From a virus: a stretch of 64,000 nt of DNA. Positions within the stretch are counted from its first letter, which is position 1. Every line of letters starts with the position of its first letter. The position numbers were made by a program, and so were the translations under genes. Positions 15,482-57,785 of this stretch are shown one piece after another. The notes beneath the pieces are model-generated. The model was not told the DNA's origin. It searched no databases and saw only the letters and a program-made list of their open reading frames with translations. The DNA lies in the IMG/VR virus record IMGVR_UViG_3300031521_000014, positions 62,001-126,000 of that record, one strand, 5' to 3'.

Positions 15482-15661
15482 GTGAATGATACTTTAAAAA
15501 TAGATGGTAAAAATAATGATCCTGGTAACCTAAGATGGGTTCCCAGAGATGAGGCTGTTCTTAATGAGATGTTGGTAACTGAAAGACGTAAAGGTAATAA
15601 GATTTTCCATAAGATTTGGGATAAGATTACTAACGCACTAAAAAAGAAAGGAAACAAATGA
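15482..15661 (+). CDS. Small basic protein, 59 aa, coupled to the RNAP beta gene
   Basis: Starts at GTG 15482 with AAAAGGGG upstream and ends in TGA overlapping the ATG of the RNA polymerase beta gene (ATGA). Its C-terminal half is strongly basic (RRKGNKIF, KKKGNK). The coupling suggests co-production with the polymerase subunit. It may be a small accessory of that enzyme, but nothing proves it. Confidence 0.6.
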   Translation: MNDTLKIDGKNNDPGNLRWVPRDEAVLNEMLVTERRKGNKIFHKIWDKITNALKKKGNK

Positions 15662-17922
15662 CCGATGGAGTAACATCATCAGGTATACCTTATAATACAC
15701 TCTTTGAAGATTTTCCAAGAGTTTTAGAAGTGGATCCTGATTTAGAGGTTAGGGAGGAGTTACTAAGCTTCCATGCTATGAATGGTAGTGTTGCTGAAAA
15801 CTCATCAAGTCGTATGTTTATGTACTCTGCGCATGTTGCCCAGATGCTAGCTATTATACATGGCGAAACGTCTATATGGCAATCCGGATTAGAGTCGCAA
15901 TTCTCTAAAAATACTTTCTCGTGTAAAGCTAAAAATGATTGTACCGTTCTAAGAGTTGTTTCGCGTTATAATGGTAATAGCAGCGATTATGCCAAGGGTC
16001 TTACAGAAGTAGTAGTCTTTGTTGTTGATAATGAAACAGGTGAGATAGATTTCATTAAGGTACCCTATTACCATACGTTACATCAGTATTTTGGTTTTAA
16101 ATACATGTGGAATAAGGGTATCGTTAATGATCTTACAAAAGGGCTAAGACTTAAAAAAGGTACGGTGCTAGCTGACTCACCAACAGTCGGACCTAACGAT
16201 ACGTATAACTATGGTGTTAATGCTAACATAGCCCTTATGAGGCTACCAGAGACCGCAGAGGATGGTGTTATCATATCAGAGTCACTTTCTAATAAGTTAG
16301 TTTATAAGATCTTTGAAAGAAGAGTTATCAATTGTGGCGCAGAAAAGATTCCTCTTAATATCTATGGTGATGAAAATGAGTATAAAGCATTTCCAGAGAT
16401 AGGTCAAAAGGTTAATACAGATAGTGTACTTATGGCGGTTCGCACCTATGATGAAGCATTAGCTCCAGCATTATTTACCAAGAAAGCATTGATGGAATAT
16501 GATCCACAATTCGATGAACCTTTCTATGTAAAAGGTCCTGGAAAAGATGAAGTTATTAACGGATTTGAGGTAACCTCAGGAACTGTGGTCGATGTAATTT
16601 CCTATTTTAACCCTAAATTCAAGAAGAGTATGTTCACAGGTGTAGCAGATGATGCTACAAAATATATTAATGGTTATAAGAAATACCATGAAGATATTAT
16701 TGGTGCCTATGAGGATATTAAGAAAGAATACAGATCAGTCTACGGTGATAATAATCTTAAACTTTCTGAAAGATTACACCGACAGATTATTAACAGTTAT
16801 GCTATTGCAAATCCGGATGGTAACAAGATAGGATACTGTTTTAGAAAAGACAATCTTGATATTATACGTATTGAAATTGTAGTCGAATATACCGTCAGAG
16901 CAAAGGTGGGTTCAAAAATTTCTGATATGGCTGGATCCAAAGGTGTTATAGTACAAGTTAAACCAGACCATGAGATGCCAGTGGACATCTATGGTGAAAA
17001 AGCCCAAATTTTAATGGACCCGAGTGCTGTGGTTTCACGTATGAATATGGGAAGACTATATGGTGTCTATTTTAATGCCTCATCAAGGCACACCAAGTCA
17101 TTAATTACTAACTGGTTGTATGCAGAAAAAACAAATTTCCCTACTAGTAATTTAGACGCAATTCCTATTACTAAAGATATCGTTCTTAAACCTTTAAATC
17201 AGTATTCGGATGCTGTAATAAATACTGCATTTGATATTGCTGTAGGATTTACTGCTGTGTTTGGTACAGAACAATTTGAAGGTTATAGGGCGATAACAGA
17301 TAGAGCCTCTAAAGAAAATATTCTTAAAGATATTGTTACTAAAGAGTTATTTTTCTATTACAGAGCTGGTAGCAAACGTAAACGTTATCAGGTTGCGTAT
17401 GGTATTGAAAGTGCTATTTATAAACCTATACGCGATAGAGTTAAGTTTATTATGTATGGTAAAGAGTATATTAGTAAAAAACCTATAAGAATAGCACCAC
17501 AGTATACTATCTTGTTAGGTAAAACTGCTGATAACTTCTTATCTACAGCATCTGCTAAGACTAATCACTTTGGTCTAGGTGTTGGTATCCCTAGTCATCA
17601 GAGACATCGTAATCCGTTTAAAGATACGGCAGTTAAAAATGAATCTGAAACTGAAGGACGCTTGTTCGTATCTTTTGCGCCACCACAGTTTGTTGCTGAA
17701 ATAAACGATAGAGCTAATAAAGATATCAACCGTTATATCTACGGTAAACTATTAAGAACTCCTAAGCCTACTAATGTAGGGCAGCTTATTGATAGGTCTG
17801 TTATACCTTATGGTAATAATTCAGCATTACAAGTAATAGAGTCGGTATTTAACTGTGCCGGAGTTGGTATTTCTTATGTAAGAGACAGCGCTGTTATACA
17901 TGAGAATAAAGAAGGTGTATAA
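15658..17922 (+). CDS. Multisubunit RNA polymerase beta subunit, C-terminal part
   Basis: 754 residues. The catalytic double-psi barrel region is recognisable: VGSKISDMAGSKGVI (about residues 413-428) corresponds to cellular beta KxGDKMAGRHGNKGV with the active-site lysine kept. MDPSAVVSRMNMGRLYG corresponds to NPLGVPSRMNIGQ. A C-terminal region (PQYTILLGKTADNFLSTASAK onward) fits the beta C-terminal clamp segment. The beta N-part is a separate gene 12 kb away (27967), as in phiKZ-type phages, where beta and beta-prime are each split. The ATG overlaps the stop of the 59-residue gene. Confidence 0.88.
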   Translation: MTDGVTSSGIPYNTLFEDFPRVLEVDPDLEVREELLSFHAMNGSVAENSSSRMFMYSAHVAQMLAIIHGETSIWQSGLESQFSKNTFSCKAKNDCTVLRVVSRYNGNSSDYAKGLTEVVVFVVDNETGEIDFIKVPYYHTLHQYFGFKYMWNKGIVNDLTKGLRLKKGTVLADSPTVGPNDTYNYGVNANIALMRLPETAEDGVIISESLSNKLVYKIFERRVINCGAEKIPLNIYGDENEYKAFPEIGQKVNTDSVLMAVRTYDEALAPALFTKKALMEYDPQFDEPFYVKGPGKDEVINGFEVTSGTVVDVISYFNPKFKKSMFTGVADDATKYINGYKKYHEDIIGAYEDIKKEYRSVYGDNNLKLSERLHRQIINSYAIANPDGNKIGYCFRKDNLDIIRIEIVVEYTVRAKVGSKISDMAGSKGVIVQVKPDHEMPVDIYGEKAQILMDPSAVVSRMNMGRLYGVYFNASSRHTKSLITNWLYAEKTNFPTSNLDAIPITKDIVLKPLNQYSDAVINTAFDIAVGFTAVFGTEQFEGYRAITDRASKENILKDIVTKELFFYYRAGSKRKRYQVAYGIESAIYKPIRDRVKFIMYGKEYISKKPIRIAPQYTILLGKTADNFLSTASAKTNHFGLGVGIPSHQRHRNPFKDTAVKNESETEGRLFVSFAPPQFVAEINDRANKDINRYIYGKLLRTPKPTNVGQLIDRSVIPYGNNSALQVIESVFNCAGVGISYVRDSAVIHENKEGV

Positions 17923-54866: not shown

Positions 54867-56999
54867 GTGATGATATTACAGAGATTTATAAAGAATCCCA
54901 GCACATTTAACATAGAACTACTATTAGTTTTGACTCCTGAAAACTCTAGGATGTTGAAAGAAGTAAAGAAACCTACTATATTTGAACCTAATACGCAAGT
55001 GTTTGATAAAGAAGGATTATTTTCTACAGAAATATTTGGTCCAGTTGGATCTACTATGCGTAAAGTTTTACCGGGCTATATTGATTTAGGGGTATCTGTT
55101 ATTCACCCTGAGATATATGATTCTATATCACAACTTGGATCAATTTACGCTAGCATCATGTCAGGTGAACAAAGAGTAAGATACAATAAGATTACACGTA
55201 ACTTTGATCCTGTCACAGATGAGGAAGAAGGACAAACAGGTTATAAGTATTTTCTAGATCATTACTTCGCAGGTAAGATTTCTTTTATGGAGAATGATAG
55301 TAGTAAGCGACAGTATAACTTAAAAATAGTTGAAAACGGAATGGATGTTACCAAAACGATTACTAAAATGATCGTGTTGCCAGCAGGACTTAGAGATTAT
55401 ACCATTAACAAGTCTGGAAGGGGTGAAGAAGACGAAGTTAATACTCTCTATAGAAAAGTACTCGCCATTACGAGTATGGTTAAAAACACCACTCTAGATG
55501 ATGATAACTTAGCACTACTTGATCCGATGCGTTTTAGATTACAGATGGCGTTTAACGAGATCTATAATCACTTTGCCGATCTTATGGATGGTAAGAATAA
55601 ATTCTTACAAAGTAAATTTTCAAAACGTGCTATCATGTTTGGTACACGTAATGTTATTACATCAACACCTAACTATATTACAGATTTAAAATCTCCGACC
55701 AAAACAGGTGTGAACCATACGATTGTTGGTATTTATCAATTTATAAAAAGTATAACACCTATTGCTGCTAATAAGGTTATTAACATTTTTATTAGTCGAT
55801 TTATGAACCCAACAACTAACACGGCAATATTAGTTAACCCCAAAACAATGAAAACTGAAATTGTTGATATTCCTGTTAAAAAGAGAGATGACTGGATATC
55901 GTTAGACGGATTAAATAATCTGTTTAATAAATTTGCACAAGATAGTTTTAAAAGTTTACCTGTTAAGATTAATGGTTATTATCTTATGCTAATTTACGAT
56001 GACGGTAAAAATGTTAAGTACTATTTTAACACCGATGATATTGATGAAAAAACAGATAGAAAGTATATCAGGCCTATTACCTATATTGAGCTTGTTTACA
56101 TGGCGATATACGATGTTAAAGATAAATACCCAGCATTCTTAACACGTTATCCTGTCGCTGCTCTGGGCGGTATCTATCCAAGTTATCAATACGTTAAAAC
56201 AACTATAAACGGTAGAACTGTTAACTTTAGTATGGACAACATTTCTAAAACAGTTTATGAGTATCCTAAACTAGGTGATGAGTACGTTAACTCTATGTCA
56301 ATTTCACAATACCATCTAAAGCGAGCTGGCGCAGATTATGATGGCGATATGATGAGCAGTAATGGGCTATTAACAGCAGAGTCTATAGCTGAAGTAAAAA
56401 GGATTCTTAATACAAAAGAATACTATATTACTCCAGACGGTGAAGCTACCTATACTATAGCTACAGATACTTTAGAATATGTTATGGCTCATTTATCAGA
56501 TACTAGTCTATTATCTAAGGTATATCAATTTCAAGAGCTAACAGATTTCATACCTGTTGATAAACTTTGCACCGCTTTAACAAAAATTTATAATACTTCT
56601 TTTGGTCATAATGAAACTGTAGAAACATTTAAAAAATGGTTAGAGACACGAATATACCGAGAAGGTGATGAAGTTGATGTTGTTGCTAATGGTAAAGGTG
56701 ATATATACGGATATGGTAGATACCGAGAATTTAATAAAGGTACAGAGATTTACTCACCTCTTTCTAAAACTAAGAGATATGGTTTTATTTCAGATCTAGC
56801 CAGTGTTGTTAAAGGAACTGGTACTAAGATACTAAACCATATATTAACCGAAGTAGATACTAAGAAAATAGATGTGATGCTTTTAGCTAGAACTGAAAGT
56901 CTTATACCTTACTATGAGAAATTTGGATTTAAAGTTGTTGATGCTAAAGGTGTCAATGTAAAGATAACTAAACCTTTGATGGTGAGGTACGCACAGTAA
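54867..56999 (+). CDS. RNA polymerase beta-prime N-part fused to a GNAT-like domain
   Basis: 710 residues. The polymerase part has FGTRNVITSTPNYI (as in cellular beta-prime GKRVDYSGRSVI) and the catalytic AGADYDGDMM loop (about residues 487-496) with all three magnesium-binding Asp, equivalent to NADFDGDQM. Residues about 590-710 instead look like a GNAT acetyltransferase: VDVVANGKGDIYGYGRY, ISDLASVVKGTGTKILNHIL (acetyl-CoA loop, motif A), VMLLARTESLIPYYEKFGFK (motif B). GNAT domains are not part of known phage polymerase subunits that I am aware of. Its stop overlaps the start of the HNH gene (TAATG). No beta-prime C-part is in the window. Confidence 0.82.
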   Translation: MMILQRFIKNPSTFNIELLLVLTPENSRMLKEVKKPTIFEPNTQVFDKEGLFSTEIFGPVGSTMRKVLPGYIDLGVSVIHPEIYDSISQLGSIYASIMSGEQRVRYNKITRNFDPVTDEEEGQTGYKYFLDHYFAGKISFMENDSSKRQYNLKIVENGMDVTKTITKMIVLPAGLRDYTINKSGRGEEDEVNTLYRKVLAITSMVKNTTLDDDNLALLDPMRFRLQMAFNEIYNHFADLMDGKNKFLQSKFSKRAIMFGTRNVITSTPNYITDLKSPTKTGVNHTIVGIYQFIKSITPIAANKVINIFISRFMNPTTNTAILVNPKTMKTEIVDIPVKKRDDWISLDGLNNLFNKFAQDSFKSLPVKINGYYLMLIYDDGKNVKYYFNTDDIDEKTDRKYIRPITYIELVYMAIYDVKDKYPAFLTRYPVAALGGIYPSYQYVKTTINGRTVNFSMDNISKTVYEYPKLGDEYVNSMSISQYHLKRAGADYDGDMMSSNGLLTAESIAEVKRILNTKEYYITPDGEATYTIATDTLEYVMAHLSDTSLLSKVYQFQELTDFIPVDKLCTALTKIYNTSFGHNETVETFKKWLETRIYREGDEVDVVANGKGDIYGYGRYREFNKGTEIYSPLSKTKRYGFISDLASVVKGTGTKILNHILTEVDTKKIDVMLLARTESLIPYYEKFGFKVVDAKGVNVKITKPLMVRYAQ

Positions 57000-57421
57000 T
57001 GGCAACGTTAGTAGAAATTGACAAACTTGATGTTAAATTTCTAAACAACCTTGATAGTGAACGTTTTGATAGGAGATATGCCTGTAACGATAGCGGACAA
57101 GTCTATTTGATTAAACAAGATGGTGGGAAGACATGGGTTGCGCAACCCATGTCACCCTTTGTCACTCGCGATGGTTATGTAGAATATGTTTTAACGTCTA
57201 TAACTAAAAGAAAGATACATATACAGGCGCAACGTATCGTTGCTGGGTTATATTGTAAAAAGAAACCTGGTTGTAATTATGTTAATCATAAGAATGGTAT
57301 TCGTTACGATAACCACTATAAGAATTTAGAGTGGGTTACCCAATCTGATAATATTAAACATTCTTATAGAGTTTTAAGAACACGCTGGAATAGTAAAGCC
57401 AGTAAGTTTGAATTGTATTAA
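56999..57421 (+). CDS. HNH homing endonuclease
   Basis: 140 residues. An N-terminal NUMOD4-like segment (RRYACNDSGQVYLIKQ, TRDGYVEYVL) precedes the HNH core: AQRIVAGLYC, NYVNHKNGIRYDNHYKNLEW and VTQSDNIKHSY, the pattern of phage HNH_3-type enzymes. The usual His before R(L/I)VA is Gln here, which may weaken catalysis. It is a free-standing gene directly after the RNA polymerase gene with a TAATG overlap, a common niche for homing enzymes, which favour conserved targets. Confidence 0.85.
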   Translation: MATLVEIDKLDVKFLNNLDSERFDRRYACNDSGQVYLIKQDGGKTWVAQPMSPFVTRDGYVEYVLTSITKRKIHIQAQRIVAGLYCKKKPGCNYVNHKNGIRYDNHYKNLEWVTQSDNIKHSYRVLRTRWNSKASKFELY

Positions 57422-57467: not shown

Positions 57468-57785
57468 ATGTCTGTGAAGTTTGTTTGTGTCGATTGTAGT
57501 GAGATTTTTGAAGCAGCCTCTATAGAGGATATTGCTTTAAGAGAAAAAAGGTGCGGCTATTGCTATAGCTGTTATATACAAAGTAAACGTTCTGGCTTAA
57601 GAGATTTACAACTACGGAAGGAAAAGGTTATACATGTTGATGATAAGCACAAATTAAAGCATATTTTCATATGTTCAAATTGTGGTACATCGACTAAGCC
57701 ACTTTCAGTTCCACCTCATAAGTGTCCAGAGTGTTTTAAAAAAGCATTTAAAAAACAAAAGGAGTGCGTCCATGTTATTATTTAG
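57468..57785 (+). CDS. Small double zinc-finger protein, 105 aa
   Basis: RBS AAAGGAA precedes ATG 57468. Four cysteine pairs make two zinc sites: CVDC with CGYCYSC (residues about 7-35), and CSNC with CPEC (about 69-90). The linker is basic. This fits a small nucleic-acid-binding or transcription-modulating protein. It overlaps the next gene by 14 bases. Confidence 0.7.
   Translation: MSVKFVCVDCSEIFEAASIEDIALREKRCGYCYSCYIQSKRSGLRDLQLRKEKVIHVDDKHKLKHIFICSNCGTSTKPLSVPPHKCPECFKKAFKKQKECVHVII

What the first reader, a model, noticed from the sequence alone, without database searches (positions are those of the whole stretch)
54867..56999. RNA polymerase beta-prime N-part carries a GNAT acetyltransferase-like C-terminal domain
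The same uninterrupted frame has the catalytic ADYDGD metal loop of beta-prime and, in its last 120 residues, a GNAT pattern: a VVKGTGTKILNHIL acetyl-CoA-type loop followed by LIPYYEKFGFKVV. In split phage polymerases this position is normally where the beta-prime N-part ends. A fused acetyltransferase-like domain could modify host or phage transcription proteins, or be a structural GNAT fold that fills space left by a missing polymerase module. I know of no described phage polymerase subunit with this fusion, but I could not search.
Basis: partly seen in the sequence, partly recalled or inferred. Interest (0 to 1): 0.82.

Follow-up and report, generated by a model that had tools for sequence, protein, structure and literature searches.

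The report
Phage polymerase subunit with acetyltransferase domain
A giant bacterial virus has joined an acetyltransferase-type protein domain onto the end of a part of the RNA polymerase that its relatives carry in the virus particle, which suggests that the polymerase may also bring a protein-modifying enzyme into the host cell.

Summary
ORF 54867-56999 (+, 710 aa) is the N-terminal beta-prime subunit of a phiKZ-type virion RNA polymerase (gp180 family; phrog_2986, residues 13-543, E 1e-150) with an in-frame C-terminal GNAT domain (about 550-710). AlphaFold2 gives the tail pLDDT 90; the listed Foldseek matches are acetyltransferases or an acetyltransferase-fold toxin. A free-standing homologue (157 aa, 29% identity) lies in the same phage. 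The two nearest relatives examined keep the flanking gene order but lack the domain, so it was gained in this lineage. The fusion was not detected in any of 294 matching phage records or in 78 readable IMG/VR relatives (of 79). Three of those carry instead a ParB/sulfiredoxin-like tail, and one an unidentified tail, at the same site; Bacillus phage virion polymerases have an HD domain on another subunit. Best reading: the subunit doubles as a carrier, so that the GNAT is packaged and injected with the polymerase and acetylates a target early, like a polyvalent protein. Packaging, catalysis and target are inferred. The 'space filler' idea is weakened: the gene for the next polymerase part is complete.

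The parts
54867..56501 (+). Virion RNA polymerase N-terminal beta-prime part (phiKZ gp180 family), residues 1-545, with the metal-binding motif ADYDGD at 56331-56348
   Evidence: phrog_2986 E 1.2e-150 over residues 13-543; PhiPA3 gp212, annotated as similar to phiKZ gp180, falls in the same PHROG; 294 of 50,697 phage records match; alignment with five relatives; motif position
56514..56996 (+). GNAT acetyltransferase-fold domain, residues 550-710, fused in frame
   Evidence: AlphaFold2 pLDDT 90.0, pTM 0.83; Foldseek and VIA-align GNAT matches; BLASTP to the phage's own free-standing GNAT, E 1e-17 over residues 551-688; PDB profile search
56805..56846 (+). VVKGTGTKILNHIL: acetyl-CoA pyrophosphate loop (GxG) and start of the following helix, residues 647-660
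   Evidence: position; K/R-G-x-G kept in 4 of 4 sequences of alignment A5
56901..56939 (+). LIPYYEKFGFKVV: GNAT motif with the likely catalytic tyrosine, residues 679-691
   Evidence: position; L-I-x-Y-Y-x-x-F-G-F kept in 4 of 4 sequences of alignment A5; the role of the tyrosine is recalled
56999..57421 (+). HNH endonuclease gene; its start overlaps the fusion gene's end by one base; an HNH gene of the same look follows the subunit in L021 and L022 without a GNAT between
   Evidence: phrog_59 E 6.5e-21; gene order in L021 and L022 by reading the ORFs
57468..57785 (+). Small cysteine-rich (zinc-ribbon-like) protein gene, conserved neighbour
   Evidence: ORF; weak Pfam Zn_ribbon_8 match, E 0.024, under the cut-off; similar ORFs in L021 and L022
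58409..59446 (+). PhuZ tubulin gene, conserved neighbour
   Evidence: phrog_4733 E 1.1e-39; similar ORFs in L021 and L022
49416..54806 (-). Large structural / lysozyme-type protein gene; a gene annotated as tail fibre or lysozyme is the divergent upstream neighbour of the subunit also in PhiPA3, SXP01 and SA002
   Evidence: phrog_3201 E 4.4e-113, phrog_4067 E 1.2e-42; annotated neighbours
15658..17922 (+). Another RNA polymerase beta-like subunit of the same phage
   Evidence: phrog_3295 E 1.3e-157

Best explanation
The gene encodes the N-terminal beta-prime subunit (phiKZ gp180 type) of the virion RNA polymerase with a complete GNAT domain added at its C-terminus. SHOWN: the fusion, the predicted fold, its absence in relatives, and a free-standing homologue in the same phage. 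INFERRED FROM phiKZ: the subunit is built into the virion polymerase, packaged in the head at about 7-30 copies, injected with the genome, and made again later in much larger amount in the cytoplasm. INFERRED: because the GNAT has no obvious translation start of its own at the junction, it goes wherever the polymerase goes. It is thus delivered at time zero with the genome and then acetylates one or more proteins (host transcription or defence proteins, or proteins around the early transcription vesicle). The polymerase subunit would work as a carrier in the manner of a polyvalent injected protein. The substrate cannot be named from sequence.
For: Core: phrog_2986 residues 13-543; ADYDGD kept; a separate phrog_2987 gene, beside the nuclear shell gene, is taken as the non-virion counterpart by position. 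Tail: fold and profile evidence. Homology to the phage's own 157-aa GNAT over residues 2-140 of that protein, i.e. nearly a whole gene was joined, with almost no linker. Gain in this lineage: L021 and L022 (54% and 48% identity) have the order subunit - HNH - zinc-ribbon - PhuZ but no GNAT. No Shine-Dalgarno-like start between residues 526 and 575, the only start codon in frame being Met540. An N-terminal tag on gp180 is tolerated: mCherry-gp180 enters the phiKZ polymerase, is packaged and is injected (PMC10612078, passages and Discussion). Other domains occur on virion polymerase subunits: ParB/sulfiredoxin-like tails at the same site in L034, L060 and L086, another tail in L073, and an HD domain in Bacillus phages (PMC7598289, passages). 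GNAT and ParB-like domains are among the domains of injected polyvalent proteins (PMC5512222, passages). A phage GNAT (Rac) brings about cleavage of the host RNA polymerase alpha subunit (PMC7552054, abstract).
Against: No activity, substrate, packaging or injection has been tested for this phage; I know it only from IMG/VR contigs. The consensus Q/R of the acetyl-CoA loop is missing (V647-V-K-G-T-G), and the loop is one residue shorter than in Naa50 in the profile alignment, so catalysis may be weak or absent. Pfam scores stay under the curated cut-offs. Nuclear shell proteins show that such phages use a GNAT fold without the active-site residues structurally (PMC9365700, passages). The fusion is known from one phage population only. 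In phiKZ the injected polymerase co-localises with the DNA in the round compartment, so an injected GNAT might not reach the cytosol until new polymerase is made. The tag shown to be tolerated on phiKZ gp180 was at the N-terminus, not at this site.
Confidence: 0.5

Rival explanations
1. The GNAT fold is catalytically dead and structural: it docks on the split site of beta-prime, holds subunits together or recruits the enzyme into the head, as the nuclear shell protein uses a GNAT fold for assembly.
For: The Q/R of the CoA loop is missing; chimallin's C-terminal domain is a GNAT fold without the AtaT active-site residues (PMC9365700, passages); almost no linker between core and domain.
Against: The GxG loop and the YYxxFGF tyrosine are kept in 4 of 4 sequences aligned; relatives do without the domain, including 74 of 79 IMG/VR relatives whose subunit ends at the core; gp178 is complete, so no gap needs filling; no detectable sequence relation to the phage's own shell protein (hhalign probability 0.2%).
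Confidence: 0.25
2. The domain acetylates the phage's own polymerase or a phage factor (self-regulation, for example shutting down early transcription or marking newly made polymerase for packaging) rather than a host target.
For: Physical tethering to the enzyme; in phiKZ the late-made virion polymerase is far more abundant than the injected one and is kept out of the nucleus (PMC10612078, Discussion), so a way of silencing or sorting it could be useful.
Against: Nothing in the sequence points to a phage substrate; related phages manage without it.
Confidence: 0.15
3. It is a chance or very recent gene fusion with no function of its own, or an assembly error.
For: Only one phage population was found with it; an HNH endonuclease gene at this place hints at local DNA mobility.
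Against: The domain is intact over 160 codons with its motifs kept and is modelled confidently; it is only about 28% identical to the nearest known copy, so it is not a fresh duplicate; two IMG/VR records agree without a mismatch over 12.1 kb around it, though they may share reads.
Confidence: 0.07

Closest known systems
phiKZ gp180 / PhiPA3 gp212, virion RNA polymerase N-beta-prime (phrog_2986)
   Same: Homologous over residues 13-543, same catalytic DxDGD motif, same end of the core, same kind of divergent structural-protein neighbour
   Different: The members compared end at the core or carry other tails; this one has a 160-residue GNAT domain, and the gp178-family gene is about 15 kb away instead of adjacent
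Virion polymerase of AR9/PBS1-type Bacillus jumbo phages with an HD domain fused to the C-beta subunit (PMC7598289, passages; PMC7824862, passages and section 15 part 1)
   Same: An enzyme-type domain fused to a subunit of the virion polymerase, role stated as unknown in PMC7598289
   Different: Different domain (HD, at the N-terminus) on a different subunit (C-terminal beta part)
Polyvalent injected proteins (PMC5512222, passages)
   Same: GNAT and ParB-like domains joined to proteins that enter the cell with the DNA
   Different: There the carriers are multidomain proteins of phages and conjugative elements; here the carrier would be a catalytic RNA polymerase subunit
Rac, phiKMV-like phage GNAT behind cleavage of host RNA polymerase alpha (PMC7552054, abstract)
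   Same: Phage GNAT acting on transcription
   Different: Not part of a polymerase subunit; sequence relation not tested here
Free-standing jumbo-phage GNATs of the same family (own phage L101; L110 in the L022 phage; L102)
   Same: Same motifs, 28-33% identity in the alignments
   Different: Not fused to the polymerase subunit
Chimallin (ChmA) C-terminal GNAT-fold domain
   Same: GNAT fold in a nucleus-forming phage
   Different: No detectable sequence relation; structural, lacks the AtaT active-site residues (PMC9365700, passages)

Membership tests
Virion RNA polymerase N-beta-prime (phiKZ gp180 family) | Homology over the whole core | tested here: met
   phrog_2986 positions 7-537 of 539, E 1.2e-150; PhiPA3 gp212, noted as similar to phiKZ gp180, is in the same PHROG
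Virion RNA polymerase N-beta-prime (phiKZ gp180 family) | DxDGD metal-binding motif | tested here: met
   ADYDGD 489-494; D490, D492, G493, D494 invariant in six sequences
Virion RNA polymerase N-beta-prime (phiKZ gp180 family) | Virion rather than non-virion version | tested here: met
   503 bits to phrog_2986 against 18 bits to phrog_2987. The phage has a separate phrog_2987 gene beside its shell gene, as gp55 stands beside gp54 in phiKZ; that gp55 itself is in phrog_2987 was not tested
Virion RNA polymerase N-beta-prime (phiKZ gp180 family) | Packaged in the virion and injected | not testable with these tools
   Shown for phiKZ gp180 in PMC10612078 (passages), not for this phage
GNAT superfamily | GNAT fold | tested here: met
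   Predicted model, pLDDT 90.0. Of the 50 Foldseek rows listed, 46 are titled as acetyltransferases or complexes with one and 4 are chains of one toxin structure (7byy); best E 4.7e-7. Of the 50 VIA-align rows listed, 45 are named as acetyltransferases and 5 are not by title (1wwz, 1wk4, 1ghe, 3ld2, 1z4e); best Z 15.6
GNAT superfamily | Motif A Q/R-x-x-G-x-G/A | tested here: inconclusive
   G-x-G is present with a basic residue just before it, but the Q/R position is Val and the loop is one residue short of Naa50; motif consensus recalled
GNAT superfamily | Curated Pfam score reached | tested here: inconclusive
   Not reached by the fused domain: 22.4 against 23.6 bits for PF13673, 17.9 in the whole protein; nor by its paralogue or L110; the family member L102 passes PF13673 and PF00583
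GNAT superfamily | Acetyl-CoA binding and acetyl transfer | not testable with these tools
   Needs protein
Polyvalent injected protein | Effector-type domain joined to a protein delivered with the DNA | tested here: inconclusive
   Fusion shown; delivery inferred from phiKZ gp180 only
Chimallin C-terminal domain | Sequence relation to the phage's own shell protein | tested here: not met
   BLASTP E 1.4, hhalign probability 0.2%; a distant relation visible only by structure was not tested

The most novel reading that the evidence does not exclude
The C-terminal split site of the virion polymerase's N-beta-prime subunit is a recurrent docking place at which jumbo phages attach small effector domains (GNAT here, ParB/sulfiredoxin-like in three other phages, another domain in one more), so that the virion RNA polymerase doubles as an effector delivery vehicle that modifies the host from the first moment of infection.
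Probability: 0.35. Interest if true: 0.8.

Novelty: new variant of a known kind. Interest (0 to 1): 0.6.

Why it matters
If the domain is active, an RNA polymerase subunit would bring a protein-modifying enzyme into the cell at time zero, before any phage gene is expressed. That would link two known themes (injected virion polymerase and injected effectors) in one molecule. The role of the HD domain on Bacillus phage virion polymerases is stated to be unknown (PMC7598289, passages); the GNAT and ParB-like fusions turn this from a single oddity into a pattern that can be tested on purified proteins.

Tried and rejected
Rejected: the tail as an ordinary beta-prime domain. Of 79 IMG/VR relatives other than the phage itself, 74 end within 14 residues of their last residue aligned to the core, 4 have other tails, and 1 (L023) could not be read to its end. 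Rejected: filler for a missing module (gp178 complete). Rejected: sequence relation to the phage's own nuclear shell protein. Disfavoured: release by an internal translation start. A head-protease cut at the junction, judged by a recalled [SAG]xE rule: no such triplet starts between residues 471 and 599; the rule itself was not checked in a paper.

Row dropped: L103, a 102-aa phage ORF matching over 54 residues, was in alignment A3 but left out of the family profile A5 as more distant; it keeps a basic residue and a longer loop before G-x-G, unlike the others.

One search kept 80 of 319 relatives, so none of this is exhaustive. The ParB-like tail model is of middling quality (pLDDT 69.8, residues 1-24 below 50), and the L034 tail on its own has no ParB match in Pfam. 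The whole 710-residue protein was not modelled: the alignment made for it put the GNAT rows in the wrong place and the second structure job went to the ParB-like tail.

Full report
WHAT IS THERE. The frame 54867-56999 (+) encodes 710 residues. Residues 13-543 match the PHROG of the phiKZ-type virion RNA polymerase N-beta-prime subunit from position 7 to 537 of 539 (E 1.2e-150); PhiPA3 gp212, annotated as similar to phiKZ gp180, falls in the same PHROG. 294 of 50,697 phage records match the protein by tblastn, none over 80% or more of it; the matches listed end at residue 577 or before (60 rows in each). In an alignment with five relatives all five end within a few residues of position 544-548 of the window protein, the split site after the double-psi barrel that virion, non-virion and cyanobacterial polymerases share (PMC7598289, passages). 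The window protein goes on for about 160 residues.

THE TAIL IS A GNAT DOMAIN. Pfam's GNAT models match the tail just below their curated cut-offs (PF13673 E 1.3e-4, 22.4 against 23.6 bits; only 17.9 bits within the whole protein). A profile of four family members finds human Naa50 in the PDB at E 3.7e-7 and GCN5 at 3e-4. AlphaFold2 with four sequences gives mean pLDDT 90.0 and pTM 0.83 (five models from 90.0 down to 49.8), with the order of strands and helices expected of a GNAT. Foldseek counts 293 PDB chains at E <= 0.001; of the 50 rows shown, 46 are titled as acetyltransferases or complexes with one and 4 are chains of a toxin structure, 7byy (which I recall as the tRNA-acetylating AtaT2); the best is 4jwp at 4.7e-7. 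The VIA-align second look gives Z 15.6 for 1wwz, and 963 of 1000 chains at Z 8 or more; 45 of its 50 rows are named as acetyltransferases. The acetyl-CoA loop keeps G-x-G with a basic residue before it, but not the consensus Q/R, and is one residue short against Naa50; the YYxxFGF tyrosine is kept in 4 of 4 sequences. Catalysis is therefore plausible but not assured.

WHERE IT CAME FROM. The same phage carries a free-standing 157-aa GNAT (G000:C1:33634-34080). BLASTP aligns its residues 2-140 to residues 551-688 of the fusion at 29% identity, E 1e-17: nearly a whole GNAT gene is joined to the subunit with almost no linker. Two further free-standing members lie in related records: a 155-aa one in the record of L022, and a 122-aa one (L102) in a record with a phiKZ-type capsid gene. 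Of 8 records searched, 2 have one; L102's record was chosen because it has it, so it is 1 of the 7 others, several of them fragments. The fused domain is closest to the phage's own free copy (shuffle Z 30, against 17 and 19 for the others), but at about 28% identity this is not a recent duplication.

WHEN IT CAME. A profile scan of IMG/VR gave 319 relatives, of which the best 80 were held; one of these is the phage itself. Of the other 79, 74 end within 14 residues of their last residue aligned to the core, 4 carry other tails of 126-130 residues (L034, L060, L073, L086), and one (L023) could not be read to its end. tblastn with the four GNATs over all 80 loci hits only the phage itself at E < 0.01. 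In L021 and L022, the two top-ranked relatives (54% and 48% identity), the subunit is followed by an HNH gene, zinc-ribbon-like genes and PhuZ as in the window; L021 has 2 bases between the subunit's stop codon and the HNH start, and L022 has a 124-aa ORF there. The GNAT was thus most likely inserted in frame at the subunit's end in this lineage.

OTHER DOMAINS AT THE SAME SITE. The tails of L060 and L086 match Pfam's ParBc_2 weakly (E 5e-4 and 0.008, both below the cut-off); the L034 tail does not but aligns with them and shares relatives in phages. A model of the L060 tail (pLDDT 69.8) has sulfiredoxin and ParB/Noc structures as its best Foldseek matches (best E 4.5e-4). The records of L034, L060, L086 and L073 all hold gp178-family genes, that of L073 in three pieces. 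The tail of L073 matches no Pfam model but is 47% identical to a free-standing FLC9 protein. So three kinds of domain have been added at one site. Two further scans found no more, and none of these scans was exhaustive.

CONTEXT. The phage has PhuZ and a nuclear shell gene at G001:C1:230418 next to a phrog_2987 gene, as phiKZ gp54 stands beside gp55. The gp178-family gene is complete (profile positions 4-1422 of 1424) but lies about 15 kb downstream, whereas in PhiPA3 and SXP01 it directly follows the subunit; in SA002 an annotated RNA polymerase beta gene does, and in FLC9 a hypothetical gene of like size. A missing module is thus not the reason for the domain.

HOW IT MOST LIKELY WORKS. In phiKZ an mCherry-gp180 fusion (tag at the N-terminus) joins the other virion polymerase subunits, is packaged and is injected; the paper gives 7-30 copies per virion, co-localisation with the DNA in the round compartment early, and about 3000 copies per cell at 30 min, outside the nucleus (PMC10612078, passages and Discussion). 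A domain on this subunit should therefore be delivered with the genome and be present again in the cytoplasm later. No internal start with a Shine-Dalgarno-like sequence lies at the junction. The most likely reading is an injected acetyltransferase carried by the polymerase, comparable to polyvalent proteins, whose domains include GNAT and ParB types (PMC5512222, passages). The substrate is unknown; host transcription is one candidate by analogy with Rac (PMC7552054, abstract), and defence or translation proteins are others. Shown: fusion, predicted fold, lineage-specific gain. Inferred: packaging, injection, activity, target.

PRIOR ART. Papers describe an HD domain on the virion polymerase's C-beta subunit in Bacillus jumbo phages (PMC7598289, passages; PMC7824862, section 15 part 1 and passages) and GNATs in jumbo phages as modifiers of host proteins (PMC7824862 and PMC13282480, passages). 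No paper on a GNAT domain fused to a phage polymerase subunit appeared, which search only an open-licence library; no search was made for a ParB-like fusion. One phage annotation (PAC2) calls a 250-aa protein with the ParB-like domain 'putative RNA polymerase beta prime subunit'; whether that name came from such a fusion was not tested.

Noticed in passing
L092:5453-5788 and L080:6791-7188: Group I introns (Rfam RF00028) interrupt the virion N-beta-prime gene inside the catalytic ADYDGD motif; L021, L024, L025 and L027 are interrupted at about the same place by inserts without an Rfam match at the gathering threshold. The window gene has no insert there.
   Followed up: partly
G001:C1:231648-233529 (outside the window): The phrog_2987 (taken as non-virion N-beta-prime) gene of the same phage appears split in two (profile positions 3-426 and 423-465, about 470 bases apart, the second piece only at E 1e-3), perhaps by another intron.
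   Followed up: no
L034:5594-5980, L060:5594-5968, L086:5615-5998: ParB/sulfiredoxin-like domain fused to the C-terminus of the same polymerase subunit in three other phages; relatives occur in EL-type, PA5oct-type and Erwinia phages, free-standing in the EL, PAC2 and PA5oct records looked at.
   Followed up: partly
L073:5588-5962: An unidentified domain fused at the same site; its free-standing relative is FLC9_gp115.
   Followed up: no
window 56999-57421: HNH endonuclease gene directly after the fusion gene, at the same place as in L021 and L022; in L021 the subunit gene has a short insert and the HNH gene stands next to its second piece, which resembles collaborative homing (recalled idea).
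   Followed up: no
L111:2596-3345 (PP408249.1, phage PAC2): A 250-aa protein annotated 'putative RNA polymerase beta prime subunit' matches the ParB-like tail, so the name may have been copied from a fusion protein.
   Followed up: no
L209-L218: A separate group of IMG/VR phages encodes a beta-prime that is not divided after the DxDGD motif; frames of 1,664-1,763 residues as far as the held DNA reaches, so the full length is not known.
   Followed up: no
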